This document shows positions 43,692 to 48,773 of a DNA stretch of 64,000 bases, piece by piece (within the stretch, counting starts at the first letter, position 1; every line of letters begins with the position of its first letter). The translations under genes were made by a program, and so were the position numbers. The notes below the pieces were generated by a model, which had not been told where the DNA came from, did not search any database, and was given only the letters and a program-made list of their open reading frames with translations. Source of the DNA: Alcaligenes faecalis (GTDB taxonomy: Bacteria; Pseudomonadota; Gammaproteobacteria; Burkholderiales; Burkholderiaceae_B); the NCBI RefSeq assembly GCF_009497775.1, contig NZ_CP031012.1, positions 2,046,001-2,110,000 of the forward strand. The letters run 5' to 3'.

Positions 43692-45131
43692 TTAGTCCAG
43701 CAGGCGTGTGGAGGAAGCCAAAGTCCCCAAATCGAACTTGGGCAGATGACGGCGTAAAGGCATGATCAGAACGCTGATGACGACCGGCACAATCGCGGCC
43801 AGCAGGAAGGATTCCAGCAGGTAATCCATAGGGCCATTGGGGCGTGGGAATACGGCCAGACCGGCCACCAAACCACCGATCGTGCTGATCGTCGCCGTAA
43901 AGCCATCATAGCGGCGGCTGTACAGACCAAAGAACACTGGGAAGGCCGCAGCGGAGCACAGCAAGTCTGCCAGCAGGAACAGATACAACACGCTAAAGCC
44001 TTGCGAGGATGCATACAGCACCGGGATGGAGCAGAACCAGATCAGGGAACGCGCCAAACTCATCATTTGAGCGGTGTTGCGATGAGGCATGATGCGGCTC
44101 AAATCCACGGCAATCAGACTGGAGACCGCGCTGATCGCAGTATCGGCGCTGCTCATGACCAGGGACAGGCCCAAGGGAATCAGCAGCACCAGGAACCAGA
44201 CCGGCACGTGCGGCAAAATCACATTGAACAAGGCCACGGAGCTGTCACCGGGCGAGCCCAGGCCGACAAAGGCCAGGCCAAACAAGCCCATCAGGAAGAT
44301 GAAGGGCGCCACAAACAAGCCGCCTAGCAGGAAGCCACGACGCATGGATTTGATGTCTTTGGCGGCATAGATACGCTGCCAGTTGCCCTGGTGAAACAGG
44401 CCGGTCAGCAAGATGGCGACAAAGAACGTCAGGCCGGCTTTCACGCCCACGGGATCGCTCAGTTCGATCAGTCGTGGGGCTTCCAGCTTCACGCTGTCAA
44501 ACAACTGCACCGGGCCGCCTACGGCTTGCCAGCCAAACATTACGATCAGGAACAGCATGGGCAGGATGACAAACATCTGCACCTTGTCGGTAAAGATGGA
44601 GGCGCGCAGCCCGCCGTAGGAGGTGTAGATCAGCGTGGCCAGCAACACAATGCTGGCGGTGACCCACAGAGGAATAGGGGCAATCAGGGTGATCATCTTG
44701 GACATGGCGGTGATTTCAGCCGTCATGGAGATGAACATGTAAAACAGCATGATGACCAGGGTCAGCGCATACATGGGGCGACCGTAGCGGGCAATCACAA
44801 ACTCGCTCAGGCTGTGGCCGCGTGGCAGCAATTCGCGCATGCGTTTGCCCAGCGGAATCATGGCCAGACGGGGCGACATGGAGCCAATGGCATAGCCGAT
44901 CACGGCGCTCAAACCGCCCCAACTGGCCGCTTGTGCCGGCGAGAACAGAATCCAGGCGCCCAGCGAGGAGGCCAGTAAAGTCAGAATGGTAGCGACCGAG
45001 CTTTGGCTGTTGCGAGCCACCACAAAGTCCTCCAAGGAGCTGTTGTAGTGGCGGGCGTACAGTACCCCGGCCAAGGCAAAAGCGGCAGAAAAAACGATCA
45101 GCCACAAGAGGGTGGCGGTTTGGTCCAGCAT
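43692..45131 (-). CDS. Sodium/solute symporter under TPP-riboswitch control (putative thiamine-precursor transporter)
   Basis: A 479-residue membrane protein of the SSS (SLC5) family with about 13 hydrophobic segments. LFHQGNWQRIYAAKD and YTSYGGLRASIFTDKVQ are typical SSS runs. The frame extends upstream to 45305 through the riboswitch; ATG 45131 is preferred because GGGGAG lies five bases before it. A full TPP riboswitch lies on the same strand at 45375-45285, so thiamine pyrophosphate would turn it off. Its substrate is therefore probably thiamine, a thiamine precursor or a breakdown product. An SSS protein called ThiV was earlier tied to TPP riboswitches in Methylobacillus; whether this is an orthologue needs a tree. 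Confidence 0.85.
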   Translation of the reverse strand: MLDQTATLLWLIVFSAAFALAGVLYARHYNSSLEDFVVARNSQSSVATILTLLASSLGAWILFSPAQAASWGGLSAVIGYAIGSMSPRLAMIPLGKRMRELLPRGHSLSEFVIARYGRPMYALTLVIMLFYMFISMTAEITAMSKMITLIAPIPLWVTASIVLLATLIYTSYGGLRASIFTDKVQMFVILPMLFLIVMFGWQAVGGPVQLFDSVKLEAPRLIELSDPVGVKAGLTFFVAILLTGLFHQGNWQRIYAAKDIKSMRRGFLLGGLFVAPFIFLMGLFGLAFVGLGSPGDSSVALFNVILPHVPVWFLVLLIPLGLSLVMSSADTAISAVSSLIAVDLSRIMPHRNTAQMMSLARSLIWFCSIPVLYASSQGFSVLYLFLLADLLCSAAAFPVFFGLYSRRYDGFTATISTIGGLVAGLAVFPRPNGPMDYLLESFLLAAIVPVVISVLIMPLRRHLPKFDLGTLASSTRLLD

Positions 45132-45284
45132 GAGATCTCCCCAAAAGCCTGTTTGAACAGGCACAAACCGGCCAAGCTGGCAGGGTGCCAGAACAGGGCG
45201 CAGAAAAATGGAGGGATTGAAATGGGGCGTGTGAGCTTGTGAATGCGCCGCACAGACAAGAGCGCGCAGGCTGCCAGGCCGCGT

Positions 45285-45375
45285 TTCCTTTCCCTTCGCC
45301 GGCATGATCCGGATCAGGTTCTAAGGGTTACCGCATGAATGCGGAGTCTCAGCCCGTTAAGGACTCCCCCAGGAA
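45285..45375 (-). promoter_or_regulatory. TPP riboswitch (THI element) upstream of the symporter
   Basis: On the - strand the element has GGGGGAGTCC, then GGGCTGAGA (P3/P2 side), and the distal AACCTGATCCGGAT followed by GCCGGCGAAGGGA. Flanking TTCCT (5') and AGGAA (3') pair to close P1. All conserved TPP-contacting blocks are present in order. It lies about 150 bp upstream of the symporter ATG. Confidence 0.95.
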
Positions 45376-45450
45376 CAGGCTAGAAGAGTAGGAGAGCTTC
45401 TTTCAAATGTCAATAATACGGTTCACTGCAATTTATGCTATGGTCTGGCT

Positions 45451-45534
45451 GCGGCACGGGGTGTCCTTCTTGGAAAGGGCTGAGATAAAACCCGTCGAAC
45501 CTGATCCAGCTCATACTGGCGAAGGGATGTCCGA
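45451..45534 (+). promoter_or_regulatory. TPP riboswitch (THI element) upstream of SDR and flavin monooxygenase
   Basis: On the + strand GGGGTGTCC, GGGCTGAGA, AACCCG-like ACCCGTCG, AACCTGATCCAGCTCATACT and GGCGAAGGGA follow in canonical order. It ends 60 bases before the SDR start, so control may be at translation. It is divergent from the other TPP riboswitch, with fewer than 80 bases between the two. Confidence 0.95.
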
Positions 45535-45594
45535 ATCCATAGCCCTGCGTCCGAACTGGGCCGACATCCTCGCCGAATTTTTGCAAGGAATGTC

Positions 45595-46377
45595 ATGTCT
45601 GTGGAACACGTCTCGGAACTCTCCCAACAACTTGTCCTGGTCACCGGCGGCGCACGCGGCCTGGGGGCTTGCCTGGTACGCGCTTTTGCACGTCAAGGCG
45701 CCAAAGTTGTCATCAATTACCTGAAAAGCGAAGCAGCCGCCCAGGCGCTGGCGGGCGAGTTTCCGCAGCAATGTCTGGCCGTACAAGCGGACGTGACGGA
45801 TGCAGCGGCTGTCCAGGCCCTGTTTGCCAAGGCGCAGGCGCACTTTGGCCAGCCCATCACCACGGTCGTCAATAACGCCTTGCCCGCGTTTTCCTTCAAT
45901 GGCGATGCCCGCCCCCATGCTGATACCTTGACGTGGGCGCAGCTGAATCAGCAGTTGGAAGGCATTGTGGGCGGTGCCCTGAACACTACACAGGCTGCCT
46001 TGCCTGGAATGAAGCAGGCCGGTTTTGGCCGCATCATCAATATCGGCACAAACCTGTTCCAGAACCCCGTTGTGCCTTACCACGACTACACCGCTGCCAA
46101 GGCCGCCTTGTTGTCCATGACACGCACCTTGTCGCACGATCTGGGACCGGATCAGATCACCGTGAATATGATTTCTGGCGGTTTGCTGCGCACAACCGAT
46201 GCGTCCGCGGCCACGCCTGAAGCGGTGTTTGATTTGATTGCGGCCAGCACACCGTTGCGTCGTGTGACTACGCCGGAAGAATTTGCGGATGCGGCTTTGT
46301 TTTTTGCAGGCCCGTGGGCACGTGCAGTGACAGGTCAGAACTTGGTGGTTGACGGTGGATTGGTGAAAAACGGATGA
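45595..46377 (+). CDS. SDR family oxidoreductase under TPP-riboswitch control
   Basis: A 260-residue short-chain dehydrogenase/reductase, FabG-like. The nucleotide site is VTGGARGLGACL, with VNNALPAFS in the NNAG position and YTAAKAALLSMT for the catalytic Tyr-x3-Lys; the catalytic Ser position reads INIGTNLF with Thr. ALGDV-like DVTD shows the usual cofactor loop. It is the first gene behind a + strand TPP riboswitch and overlaps the monooxygenase gene by 4 bp. In thiamine metabolism no established step needs an SDR of this type, so the product pair points to processing of an uncommon thiamine-related compound. Confidence 0.87.
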   Translation: MSVEHVSELSQQLVLVTGGARGLGACLVRAFARQGAKVVINYLKSEAAAQALAGEFPQQCLAVQADVTDAAAVQALFAKAQAHFGQPITTVVNNALPAFSFNGDARPHADTLTWAQLNQQLEGIVGGALNTTQAALPGMKQAGFGRIINIGTNLFQNPVVPYHDYTAAKAALLSMTRTLSHDLGPDQITVNMISGGLLRTTDASAATPEAVFDLIAASTPLRRVTTPEEFADAALFFAGPWARAVTGQNLVVDGGLVKNG

Positions 46378-47666
46378 GGCAGTTGCATTTCAATTTGTTC
46401 ATTATGGGCTGCGGACATCACAAAGCAGCCTGGCGTCATCCCGATTCTCAGGTCGAACGTTTAGGCGATGTCCGATTTTACGAAGAGCTGACCCAGATTG
46501 CCGAGCGCGGCAAGCTGGACGCTATTTTCTTTGCCGATGGTCAGTCCAGCGACAACGTGTCCGATGGCCCGCGCTGGTTTCTTGAACCCTTGACCATGAT
46601 GGCTGCGCTGGCGCGAGCCACCGAGCGTATCGGTCTGATCAGCACCGTTTCCAGCACTTTTTACACGCCCTTTGTGGCAGCGCGCATGTTGTGCTCTCTG
46701 GATCATGTGTCCAAAGGGCGAATGGGCTGGAACGTGGTCACATCCATGTTTGATTCGGAAGCACGTAATCACGGCTACGAAGCCATGCCCGACCATGCCT
46801 GGCGCTATGCGCGGGCTGAAGAGTTTGTTGATACCGCATTGCAGCTGTTCGACTCCTGGAGCGACAGTGCCTTGGTCATGGACCGACAGGGTGATTACGC
46901 CAAAGTGGATCAGGTCCGCCAGATCCTGCATAAAGGTGATCACTTTCTGGTAGATGGTCCCTTGACCCTGCCGCGCTCGCCACAAGGGCAGCCCGTGCTG
47001 TTCCAGGCCGGTGCGTCTGAACAAGGCCGGGATTTGGCCGCGCGCAAAGCCGAAGCCATTTATGCCGTGGCTTATGACTTGCCCTCGGCTCAGTCCTATT
47101 ACCGCGACATCAAACGACGCGTGCGTGAAGCGGGCCGTGGCGTGGACGTGCCCGTTATGCCGGGCTTGGTGACCTATGTGGGTTCCACCATGGAAGAGGC
47201 GCGCCGCAAGCAGCAAGAGCTGGACGAATTGCTGCCCGCCGAGACTTCCTTGCGTCAGCTGGGCATGTTTGTCGGCCAGGATTGCATGAATTGGGAGCTG
47301 GATGCACCAGTGCCCCCACTGCTGCCATTGGAAAGCTTCAAGGGCCCCAAAGGGCGCTACGCTACCATGCTGCGCATTGTGGAAATGGAAAAACCGACGG
47401 TACGCCAACTGCTGGGTCGCATTGCGGCTGGCGGCGGTCATTGCACCATGGTCGGGACGCCAGAATCCATTGCCGATCAGATTGAGCAATGGTGGCGCAA
47501 CGAAGGCGCGGATGGTTTCAACCTGATGCCGCCTTCCTTGCCTAATGGCATTCGCGACTTTGTTGAGCAGGTGATTCCAGTTCTGCAAAAACGCGGTCTG
47601 TTCCGCCAGGAATACGAGCACACCACCTTGCGCGGCCATCTGGGCCTGGAGCGTCCTGCGGCCTGA
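46374..47666 (+). CDS. NtaA/SnaA/DszA-type flavin-dependent monooxygenase under TPP-riboswitch control
   Basis: A 430-residue bacterial-luciferase-like FMN monooxygenase of the NtaA/DszA group. Family runs: FNLFIMGCGHHKAAWRHP at the start, ARATERIGLISTVSSTFYTPF, GRMGWNVVTSMFDSEARNHG and FQAGASEQGRDLAARKAEAIYA. Such enzymes take FMNH2 from a separate reductase and oxidise or cleave N- or S-containing compounds, including ring opening. It is coupled to the SDR by ATGA overlap and ends at a strong terminator, so the TPP-controlled unit has exactly two genes. A pyrimidine or thiazole breakdown product of thiamine is a plausible substrate. Confidence 0.87.
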   Translation: MRQLHFNLFIMGCGHHKAAWRHPDSQVERLGDVRFYEELTQIAERGKLDAIFFADGQSSDNVSDGPRWFLEPLTMMAALARATERIGLISTVSSTFYTPFVAARMLCSLDHVSKGRMGWNVVTSMFDSEARNHGYEAMPDHAWRYARAEEFVDTALQLFDSWSDSALVMDRQGDYAKVDQVRQILHKGDHFLVDGPLTLPRSPQGQPVLFQAGASEQGRDLAARKAEAIYAVAYDLPSAQSYYRDIKRRVREAGRGVDVPVMPGLVTYVGSTMEEARRKQQELDELLPAETSLRQLGMFVGQDCMNWELDAPVPPLLPLESFKGPKGRYATMLRIVEMEKPTVRQLLGRIAAGGGHCTMVGTPESIADQIEQWWRNEGADGFNLMPPSLPNGIRDFVEQVIPVLQKRGLFRQEYEHTTLRGHLGLERPAA

Positions 47667-47818: not shown

Positions 47819-48568
47819 ATGAAAACCGCCGTTGTCACCGGGGCCTCCTCAGGGTTTGGGGCTGCGCTTGCCCGTAAATTGGTATCTGAAGGACACACCG
47901 TGCTGGGTCTGGCGCGTCGTCAGGACAAGCTGGATGCGCTGGCCGCCGAGCTGGGCGAGCGCTTTGTGCCGGTCAGCGTGGATTTGACCGATCGTGCGCG
48001 TGCCGAAGCGGTGCTGGCCGATCTGACGGCTCGTTTTCCCAATATTGATGTGCTGATCAATAACGCCGGTTTGGCGCTGGGCGTGGACAAGGCGCAAGAC
48101 GCCAAGATGGATCAGTGGGACACCATGGTGGCTACCAATATCAGCGCGCTGCTGCACATTACGCACGCTTTGTTGCCTGGCATGGTCAAGCAAAACAAGG
48201 GGCACATCATCAATCTGGGTTCGACTGCGGGTGAATATGCCTACGCAGGCGGCAATGTGTACGGCGCCACCAAGGCTTTTGTGCATCAACTGGGTCTGAA
48301 CCTGCGTGCCGACCTGTCGGGTACGGCAGTTCGTGTGTCTACCGTGGCTCCTGGCCTCTGTTCCGGTACGGACTTCTCTACCGTTCGTCTGGGCGATAAG
48401 GATAAAGCCGCTGCGCTTTACCAGAACGTGGATGCGCTGACGCCCGACGACATCGCCAACACCATTGCCTGGATCATGAACGCGCCTGCCCATATGAACG
48501 TCAACTACATCGAGTTGATGCCTGTGGCGCAAAGCTTTGCTGGTTTGAGCGTGCATCGCAAGGCTTAA
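47819..48568 (+). CDS. ydfG: NADP-dependent 3-hydroxy acid dehydrogenase, YdfG-like SDR
   Basis: A 249-residue SDR. Cofactor motif VTGASSGFGAALA and NNAGLALG, catalytic LGSTAGEYAYAGGNVYGATKAFVHQL with Ser, Tyr and Lys in place, and the YdfG-like tail HMNVNYIELMPVAQSFAGL. YdfG reduces or oxidises 3-hydroxy acids such as L-allo-threonine and malonic semialdehyde. It has its own weak ribosome site and lies between two riboswitch-controlled units. Confidence 0.87.
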   Translation: MKTAVVTGASSGFGAALARKLVSEGHTVLGLARRQDKLDALAAELGERFVPVSVDLTDRARAEAVLADLTARFPNIDVLINNAGLALGVDKAQDAKMDQWDTMVATNISALLHITHALLPGMVKQNKGHIINLGSTAGEYAYAGGNVYGATKAFVHQLGLNLRADLSGTAVRVSTVAPGLCSGTDFSTVRLGDKDKAAALYQNVDALTPDDIANTIAWIMNAPAHMNVNYIELMPVAQSFAGLSVHRKA

Positions 48569-48630
48569 GCTTGGCGACCGGCCCTGGTCTGGCTTGATTA
48601 GACTTGGGCTCCGGTCTTACACTGCAAACG

Positions 48631-48765
48631 TCTTCAGGGCGGGGTGAAATTCCCCACCGGCGGTAAGGGAGTCACTCCCCAGCCCGCGAGCGCTTTCCCC
48701 TTGGGAAAGGTCAGCAGATCAGGTGAAAAGCCTGAGCCGACGGTAAGAGTCCGGATGAAAGAAGA
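48631..48765 (+). promoter_or_regulatory. FMN riboswitch (RFN element)
   Basis: The element begins TCTTCAGGGCGGGGTGAAA, contains CCCCACCGGCGGTAAG, AGCCCGCGAGCG, GTCAGCAGATCAGGTGAAA, GAGCCGACGGT and ends AGTCCGGATGAAAGAAGA. All conserved RFN blocks are present in order, and the TCTTC start and GAAGA end pair as P1. It lies upstream of the riboflavin synthase gene. Confidence 0.96.
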
Positions 48766-48773
48766 TGAAGCAT

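What the first reader, a model, noticed from the sequence alone, without database searches (positions are those of the whole stretch)
43692..47666. Divergent TPP-riboswitch pair drives a symporter and an SDR-flavin monooxygenase pair: candidate new thiamine salvage system
Two complete TPP riboswitches sit back to back (45375-45285 on -, 45451-45534 on +), less than 80 bases apart. One controls an SSS-type sodium/solute symporter; the other controls a two-gene operon of an SDR and an NtaA/DszA-type FMN monooxygenase coupled by an ATGA overlap. None of the three is a standard thiamine biosynthesis enzyme. Repression by TPP implies that the products supply thiamine or a precursor. A flavin monooxygenase of this group opens or oxidises N/S-heterocycles, so the simplest model is import of a damaged or modified thiamine (or a pyrimidine or thiazole fragment) followed by oxidation and reduction to a usable precursor.
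Basis: partly seen in the sequence, partly recalled or inferred. Interest (0 to 1): 0.82.

Follow-up and report, generated by a model that had tools for sequence, protein, structure and literature searches.

The report
Vitamin B1 pyrimidine salvage module
Three bacterial genes, switched by two vitamin-B1-sensing RNAs, most likely import a vitamin B1 fragment and turn it into the pyrimidine half of the vitamin by an oxidation and a reduction not described for this vitamin in the papers we could search, and a sizeable share of the bacteria that carry them lack the standard enzyme for making that half.

Summary
Two full TPP riboswitches (69.7 and 69.3 bits) lie back to back, one before a sodium:solute symporter, one before a coupled SDR and NtaA/DmoA-type flavin monooxygenase (LLM) pair. 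The unit recurs in beta- and gammaproteobacteria, and TPP-SDR-LLM also in alphaproteobacterial, actinobacterial and Bacillota records. Three lines point to supply of the thiamine pyrimidine (HMP). (1) Carriers tend to lack ThiC: 17 of 49 against 15 of 102 non-carriers in the window's family, 8 of 12 against 9 of 139 in the Halomonas family. (2) In 12 of 12 ThiC-less carriers searched (of 17), this locus holds the only two TPP riboswitches of the genome. (3) Relatives of the SDR end TPP-controlled thiM-thiE-thiD operons; relatives of the symporter follow TenA in haloarchaea. The symporter is the known ThiV/SSSP type; the SDR-LLM pair is what is new. Best model: ThiV imports a pyrimidine vitamer, LLM cleaves at its CH2 to give the 5-aldehyde, SDR reduces that to HMP. 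Substrate and both reactions are inferred. Exceptions: the SDR-LLM side lacks a riboswitch in Achromobacter; three Caballeronia SDRs show no thiamine link.

The parts
45273..45380 (-). TPP riboswitch aptamer (THI element) in the leader of the symporter mRNA
   Evidence: RF00059, 69.3 bits, E 1.5e-11, full length; also found by the whole-genome search
45447..45544 (+). TPP riboswitch aptamer in the leader of the SDR-LLM operon
   Evidence: RF00059, 69.7 bits, E 1.2e-11, full length;
45563..45594 (+). predicted hairpin holding the AAGGA ribosome-binding site directly before the SDR start; possible OFF platform acting on translation
   Evidence: RNA fold; the SD-like site is paired (probability >0.5) in 51 of 54 analysable relatives, with differing stems. 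No control for pairing of random sites was run; energies alone are unremarkable (median z -1.4 against mononucleotide shuffles)
45143..45162 (-). predicted hairpin GCCTGTT-CA-AACAGGC followed by TTTT, just before the GGGGAG of the symporter; its 3' arm could also pair with the 5' side of the aptamer
   Evidence: RNA fold and reading of the sequence; not tested in relatives
43692..45131 (-). ThiV/SSSP-type sodium:solute symporter, 479 aa
   Evidence: PF00474 72.1 bits, cut-off 22.8; nearest plasmid-borne homologues mostly sit behind TenA in haloarchaea
45595..46377 (+). short-chain dehydrogenase/reductase, 260 aa, proposed pyrimidine-aldehyde reductase
   Evidence: NF006393 433 bits, cut-off 292; Y165 and K169 invariant and Thr at 152 in the usual Ser place in 13 of 13 aligned (which residues are catalytic is recalled)
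46374..47666 (+). FMN-dependent NtaA/DmoA-family (luciferase-like) monooxygenase, 430 aa, proposed C-N or C-S cleaving step
   Evidence: TIGR03860 512 bits, cut-off 279.7; nearest solved structure by sequence YtnJ (1yw1), E 5e-88

Best explanation
It is a TPP-repressed salvage unit for the pyrimidine half of thiamine. When TPP is scarce both riboswitches release expression. The ThiV-type symporter imports a pyrimidine vitamer, meaning a thiamine breakdown product that still carries the 4-amino-2-methyl-5-pyrimidinylmethyl group. The FMN monooxygenase oxidises the exocyclic CH2 and cleaves its bond to nitrogen or sulfur, giving 4-amino-2-methyl-5-formylpyrimidine. The SDR reduces this aldehyde to HMP, which ThiD and ThiE carry on to thiamine phosphate. 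The pair would thus do oxidatively what TenA does by hydrolysis. Shown here: the riboswitches, the gene unit, its conservation, and its association with absence of ThiC. Inferred: that the switches are OFF switches (as known for TPP riboswitches) and that the unit supplies HMP. Guessed from family chemistry: the aldehyde intermediate and the substrate (aminomethyl- or N-substituted aminomethylpyrimidine, a thioether, or the sulfonate that forms when sulfite splits thiamine).
For: Two TPP riboswitches. In 80 named loci a TPP element lies upstream of SDR-LLM in 62, and upstream of the symporter in 73 of the 73 loci where it was found. In Halomonas the symporter sits on the other side of the pair and still has its own TPP element. 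ThiC is missing in 17 of 49 carriers against 15 of 102 non-carriers in the window's family (Fisher p 0.0097; 9 of 38 against 2 of 81, p 5e-4, in genomes at least 98% complete and over 1.5 Mb), and in 8 of 12 against 9 of 139 in the Halomonas family (p 1.7e-6; 5 of 8 against 9 of 139, p 1.8e-4, without the four carriers whose ThiC state was known). ThiG matches in 149 of 151 genomes (147 over the cut-off) and strongly in 15 of the 17 ThiC-less carriers; ThiE and ThiD in 15 of 15 ThiC-less carriers searched, of 17. In 12 of 12 ThiC-less carriers searched, of 17, the only TPP riboswitches of the genome are the two of this unit. Eleven of the 17 have no TenA hit below 1e-30. Relatives of the SDR (64-66%) are the fourth gene of TPP-thiM-thiE-thiD-SDR in 6 of 13 plasmid contexts examined. 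Six of nine plasmid homologues of the symporter directly follow TenA, one follows a TenA remnant, one has its own TPP element. NtaA, DmoA, DszA and YtnJ-type enzymes cleave C-N or C-S bonds; oxidative dealkylation leaves an aldehyde or keto product (family chemistry, recalled).
Against: No substrate or activity was tested. In 17 of 17 named Achromobacter loci no TPP element was detected on the SDR-LLM side and in 9 of them the SDR is not beside the LLM. Among the 46 family loci seven lack it there, one of them outside the Achromobacter-type genera (L057, G004). Three Caballeronia SDRs (68-70%) have no TPP element or annotated thi gene near. Most carriers of the window's family (32 of 49, counting the partial ThiC hits of G004 and G025 as present) keep ThiC, the window's own genome included. 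The alphaproteobacterial, Micrococcaceae, Rhodococcus and Mesobacillus loci show SDR-LLM without the symporter nearby, so import is not always coupled. Of the ThiC-less carriers G017 has no ThiG match and G069 only a weak one. The LLM of Oligella ureolytica DSM 18253 has an in-frame stop. The genomes are related, so the Fisher tests overstate independence, and completeness is not known for the Halomonas set.
Confidence: 0.62

Rival explanations
1. The symporter takes up HMP or thiamine directly and does all the salvage; SDR and LLM serve a separate TPP-responsive need, for example repair or removal of a toxic thiamine analogue or by-product.
For: ThiV of SAR11 is the likely HMP importer (passages of PMC11452348). 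In Achromobacter only the symporter has a detected TPP element.
Against: SDR-LLM has its own TPP element in 62 of 80 named loci and also where no symporter of this type was found near (L168, L183, L188, L198, L199, L200, L213). The SDR sits in thiMED operons. The three alphaproteobacterial genomes tested (two Pseudochrobactrum, one Rhizobiales bacterium close to them) lack ThiC although no such symporter lies within 6 kb of the pair.
Confidence: 0.17
2. SDR and LLM make HMP from a cell metabolite, not from an imported vitamer: an O2- and flavin-dependent replacement for ThiC.
For: The association with absence of ThiC in two families and in the alphaproteobacterial carriers; SDR-LLM occurs without the symporter nearby.
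Against: 32 of 49 carriers in the window's family keep ThiC; the usual partner is a ThiV-type importer; building the pyrimidine needs many bonds that an LLM plus an SDR are not known to make.
Confidence: 0.08
3. The unit salvages the thiazole half or repairs oxidised whole thiamine (for example reduction of a thiamine or thiazole aldehyde).
For: The SDR also lies in one operon with thiM in rhizobia; oxidised thiamine forms are known (recalled).
Against: ThiG matches in 149 of 151 genomes of the family (147 over the cut-off), so thiazole is not what carriers lack; the gene missing more often in carriers is ThiC.
Confidence: 0.1

Closest known systems
ThiV/SSSP TPP-regulated sodium:solute symporter (Methylobacillus, SAR11, haloarchaea, algae)
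   Same: PF00474 symporter behind a TPP riboswitch; homologues 34-41% identical directly follow TenA in haloarchaea. [quoted passage not shown] other Methylobacillus and Marinobacter species carry this unit.
   Different: Here its usual partner is an SDR-LLM pair, where haloarchaea have TenA. Identity with SAR11 or M. flagellatus ThiV was not measured.
TenA / YlmB pyrimidine salvage (thiaminase II route; recalled, with passages of PMC10470507)
   Same: Supplies HMP from thiamine breakdown products; in haloarchaea TenA lies with the same type of importer.
   Different: No TenA in the unit; a flavin monooxygenase and a reductase would replace a hydrolase (inferred).
NtaA/DmoA family LLM monooxygenases (YtnJ, DszA, EDTA and DMS monooxygenases, riboflavin lyase)
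   Same: TIGR03860 above cut-off; YtnJ E 5e-88, DszA E 6e-80, riboflavin lyase E 5e-59.
   Different: Falls on one side of a branch in a tree with 16 paralogues (support 94/95, just under the tool's strong mark; 95% of bootstrap trees; long branches warned of), and is TPP-linked, which the 12 paralogue loci are not.
NF006393 / PRK08642 '3-oxoacyl-ACP reductase'
   Same: 433 bits against a cut-off of 292.
   Different: Its context is thiamine-linked in 10 of 13 plasmid contexts examined, so the FabG-like name is probably wrong for this group.
thiMED salvage operon of rhizobia
   Same: TPP-controlled; in Neorhizobium, four Rhizobium records and Gemmobacter it ends in an SDR of the same family.
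   Different: No LLM beside it there; kinases and ThiE in place of symporter and LLM.

Membership tests
TPP riboswitch (RF00059) | covariance-model match above the gathering score, full aptamer | tested here: met
   69.7 and 69.3 bits against 54.3, positions 1-105 of 105
TPP riboswitch (RF00059) | binds TPP and lowers expression | not testable with these tools
   Only predicted RBS hairpins
NtaA/DmoA FMN-dependent monooxygenase (TIGR03860) | curated score cut-off | tested here: met
   512.3 bits against 279.7
NtaA/DmoA FMN-dependent monooxygenase (TIGR03860) | nitrilotriacetate or dimethyl sulfide as substrate | not testable with these tools
   Family name only
RutA pyrimidine monooxygenase | equivalog cut-off TIGR03612 | tested here: not met
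   64.8 bits against 498.3
NF006393 SDR | equivalog cut-off | tested here: met
   433.4 against 292; also met by the thiMED-linked SDRs of L206 and L211, and by L200, L204, L213
NF006393 SDR | 3-oxoacyl-ACP reductase activity (its name) | not testable with these tools
   Contexts argue against it
ThiV/SSSP symporter | sodium:solute symporter family | tested here: met
   PF00474 72.1 bits, cut-off 22.8; below the TIGR00813 superfamily cut-off (99.6 against 184)
ThiV/SSSP symporter | TPP riboswitch upstream | tested here: met
ThiV/SSSP symporter | nearest relatives linked to thiamine genes | tested here: met
   8 of 9 plasmid homologues at E<=1e-30: 6 behind TenA, 1 behind a TenA remnant, 1 with a TPP element; the ninth (Halalkaliarchaeum, 31.5%) shows neither
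ThiV/SSSP symporter | sequence clade with SAR11 ThiV | not tested
   No SAR11 sequence was at hand
ThiV/SSSP symporter | transports HMP | not testable with these tools
   -
PanF / PutP symporters | equivalog cut-offs TIGR02119, TIGR02121 | tested here: not met
   37.3 against 328; 34.3 against 515.5
TenA-type salvage | TenA in the unit | tested here: not met
   The two TenA-family hits of the own genome are weak (E 5.7e-9 and 6.3e-4) and lie far from the window

The most novel reading that the evidence does not exclude
SDR and LLM form a route to the thiamine pyrimidine that is independent of radical-SAM ThiC and of TenA. It uses O2 and flavin, gives the 5-formylpyrimidine and then HMP, has spread between phyla, and lets ThiC be lost repeatedly. 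(In its boldest form, given 0.08 among the rivals, it makes HMP from a cell metabolite without an imported vitamer.)
Probability: 0.45. Interest if true: 0.85.

Novelty: new variant of a known kind. Interest (0 to 1): 0.76.

Why it matters
HMP auxotrophy is described as the commonest form of B1 auxotrophy in marine microbes (start of the abstract of PMC11452348, listing), and which breakdown products bacteria can use, and how they take them up, is open (passages of PMC10470507). A second enzymatic route to HMP would change how ThiC-less genomes are read, would give a function to a monooxygenase and a reductase now annotated as 'LLM oxidoreductase' and '3-oxoacyl-ACP reductase', and makes a direct prediction: Candidimonas-type bacteria, which lack ThiC and a strong TenA hit, should grow on pyrimidine vitamers by means of SDR-LLM.

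Tried and rejected
Chance riboswitch: rejected by scores and by conservation. Ordinary nitrilotriacetate or sulfur-source catabolism: same-family paralogues were fetched at 12 loci and none shows a TPP element, SDR or symporter. Plain thiamine import as the whole story: disfavoured because ThiC-less carriers mostly keep ThiG, ThiE and ThiD. A class-wide sample of 369 genomes found no further carrier at E<=1e-130, although named gammaproteobacterial carriers exist, so the unit is patchy.

Literature: I saw the listings of searches, several of them capped (13: 20 of 162 listed; 25: 20 of 75; 60: 20 of 28; 99: 10 of 47), and no title there concerns an LLM monooxygenase or SDR in thiamine salvage; one found no paper that holds 'nitrilotriacetate monooxygenase', 'thiamine' and 'riboswitch' together. 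One search (Candidimonas and thiamine) listed one paper, not read. Passages only were read of PMC3766115, PMC2258182, PMC2211319, PMC11452348, PMC4260697, PMC10881298, PMC12815266, PMC2434198, PMC10470507 and PMC12637900; no paper was read whole. The library is open-access only; the 2002 JBC paper that defined ThiV, the 2006 thiMED paper and a 2019 paper on thiamine salvage operons moved to yeasts are not held, and supplements could not be seen, so a listing of these genes as TPP targets elsewhere cannot be excluded.

Not done: structure prediction, tree of the symporter with SAR11 ThiV, search for a flavin reductase partner. Selections: the 27 of 80 named loci tested for ThiC were chosen by me, mostly outside Alcaligenaceae. 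Of 18 SDR plasmid records I examined the context of 13. Of 17 ThiC-less carriers I searched 12 for riboswitches and 15 for ThiE and ThiD. The size and completeness filters were chosen after seeing the unfiltered table. The Halomonas-family test was chosen after one search had shown three ThiC-less Halomonas carriers, so repeats it without the four carriers already known. Partial ThiC hits (G004, G025, G124; G631 and G679 in the Halomonas set) were counted as present; counting the first three as absent gives 19 of 49 against 16 of 102, p 0.0034. Carriers include three partial LLM matches at contig ends (G025, G037, G145).


Full report
OBSERVATION. The window holds two complete TPP riboswitches facing away from each other, 66 bases apart. 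The minus-strand one precedes a PF00474 symporter; the plus-strand one precedes an SDR and an NtaA/DmoA-family monooxygenase whose frames overlap by ATGA. The symporter most likely starts at 45131, since the first ATG of its frame lies inside the aptamer. Downstream lie a second SDR, an FMN riboswitch and riboflavin synthase; on the other side a MotA/ExbB-family and a MotB/OmpA-family gene. The window lies in a 4.16-Mb genome, by its LLM an Alcaligenes (99% identical to that of A. faecalis AU14). It has four TPP elements: the pair here, one before a Nudix gene and thiD, and a weak one (48.1 bits, under the gathering score) before thiC.

CONSERVATION. Of 151 genomes of the window's family (drawn evenly from a larger group) 49 have an LLM at 71% identity or more, while all other matches at E<=1e-80 are at 49% or less. 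I fetched 46 of these 49 loci (the window's own and two partial ones left out) and 12 paralogue loci. The symporter is near the LLM in 46 of 46, the SDR directly before it in 43 of 46, a TPP element before the symporter in 45 of 46 and before SDR-LLM in 39 of 46; none of the 12 paralogue loci shows any of these. A named set of 80 loci, kept as the best of 427 and partly the same genomes, spans Alcaligenes, Achromobacter, Candidimonas, Pusillimonas, Oligella, Methylobacillus, Comamonas, Oceanimonas, Oceanisphaera, Halomonas, Marinobacter, Pseudomonas, Pseudochrobactrum and a Micrococcaceae bin. There TPP precedes SDR-LLM in 62 of 80; of the other 18, 17 are named Achromobacter and one is cut by a contig end. 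The symporter was found in 73 and has a TPP element in all 73. In Halomonas it lies on the far side of the pair, convergent, with its own TPP element, so the co-regulation has survived rearrangement. SDR-LLM with a TPP element also lies on a Pseudochrobactrum plasmid, a Rhodococcus plasmid (LLM 59%) and, at 48-50% identity, a Mesobacillus plasmid. In a tree of 97 LLMs the 81 members fall on one side of a branch (94/95, just under the tool's strong mark; long branches among the paralogues).

WHAT IT SUPPLIES. In the window's family ThiG matches in 149 of 151 genomes (147 over the cut-off) and ThiC in 119. ThiC is missing in 17 of 49 carriers and 15 of 102 non-carriers (p 0.0097); 11 of these 15 non-carriers are genomes of 0.9 Mb or less or under 90% complete. 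With genomes at least 90% complete and over 1.5 Mb the figures are 14 of 45 and 4 of 88 (p 5e-5); at 98%, 9 of 38 and 2 of 81 (p 5e-4). Two genera (g22, g29) show replacement: members with the unit lack ThiC, and members without it have ThiC except one (G106). Of 27 mostly distant carriers 8 lack ThiC: three of the seven Halomonas-type genomes, a Marinobacter, three alphaproteobacteria (two Pseudochrobactrum and a Rhizobiales bacterium near them) and the Micrococcaceae bin. Prompted by this I tested the family of Vreelandella jeotgali: 8 of 12 carriers and 9 of 139 non-carriers lack ThiC (p 1.7e-6); without the four carriers already known it is 5 of 8 against 9 of 139 (p 1.8e-4). The 17 ThiC-less carriers of the window's family have a strong ThiG match in 15 (none in G017, weak in G069), and ThiE and ThiD in 15 of 15 searched. 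Eleven of 17 have no TenA hit below 1e-30, three of them with weak family hits. In 12 of 12 searched the only TPP riboswitches of the genome are the two of this unit. Most of these bacteria can make thiazole and couple it but need a pyrimidine, and this is the only TPP-riboswitch locus found in them.

INDEPENDENT LINKS OF THE PARTS. Relatives of the symporter on plasmids (9 records at E<=1e-30) directly follow TenA in 6, follow a TenA remnant in one, have a TPP element in one and show neither in one. [quoted passage not shown] both genera appear in my set through other species. A SAR11 study names ThiV as the likely carrier for its high-affinity HMP uptake (passages). Relatives of the SDR on plasmids (18 records at E<=1e-55, 13 contexts examined) are the last gene of TPP-thiM-thiE-thiD-SDR in 6 (Neorhizobium, four Rhizobium, Gemmobacter), lie with an LLM behind a TPP element in 3, lie behind a TPP element with a broken LLM in one (Exiguobacterium), and show no thiamine link in 3 Caballeronia. 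The SDR is thus linked to ThiD without the LLM and to the LLM without ThiD, as expected for an enzyme whose product feeds ThiD.

MECHANISM. NtaA, DmoA, DszA and YtnJ-type LLM enzymes use FMNH2 and O2 to cleave C-N or C-S bonds, leaving an aldehyde or keto product (recalled; the family match is). Applied to a pyrimidinyl-CH2-X compound this gives the 5-formylpyrimidine, and an SDR could reduce it to HMP, the substrate of ThiD. This is the simplest chemistry that uses both enzymes and ends at what ThiC-less carriers need. The substrate X is open. The leader before the SDR folds into a hairpin that holds the ribosome-binding site; in 51 of 54 analysable relatives an SD-like site is paired, with different stem sequences, which fits translational shut-off by TPP. 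That test had no control for pairing of random sites, and the folding energies are ordinary.

LIMITS. No TPP element was detected on the SDR-LLM side in the 17 named Achromobacter loci, and in 9 of them the SDR is not beside the LLM; one (L131) and an unnamed relative (L043) have it about 2.6 kb beyond the symporter. Most carriers of the window's family keep ThiC, so in Alcaligenes the unit is a supplement. The Oligella ureolytica LLM has an in-frame stop. Fisher tests treat related genomes as independent. The open-access library does not hold the founding papers on ThiV and thiMED.

NOVELTY. The riboswitch class, the symporter type and pyrimidine salvage are known. A TPP-controlled flavin monooxygenase plus SDR in this role did not appear in the listings named under Tried and rejected. 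I rate it a new variant of a known kind.

Noticed in passing
L036 8156-9613 (own genome C1:1798155-1799612, - strand): A TPP riboswitch (70.8 bits) precedes a Nudix-family gene that overlaps thiD by four bases; a TPP-controlled Nudix enzyme beside ThiD could cleave a thiamine-related diphosphate.
   Followed up: partly
window 45595-46377 and L206, L211: NCBI model NF006393 is named '3-oxoacyl-ACP reductase', but 10 of 13 plasmid members examined sit behind TPP riboswitches; the name is probably a mislabel for this group.
   Followed up: partly
L130 420-7275: Achromobacter pulmonis seems to carry a tandem duplication: two TPP elements, a full and a partial symporter match, and a partial and a full LLM match.
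   Followed up: no
   Followed up: no
window 48626-48770: A strong FMN riboswitch (118.9 bits) lies between a second SDR gene (47819-48568) and riboflavin synthase, so flavin and thiamine switches are neighbours.
   Followed up: no
G679 (Halomonas family), C1:489103-490445: ThiC appears in several pieces with stops, a probable ThiC pseudogene or a faulty assembly, in a genome where the unit was not found.
   Followed up: no
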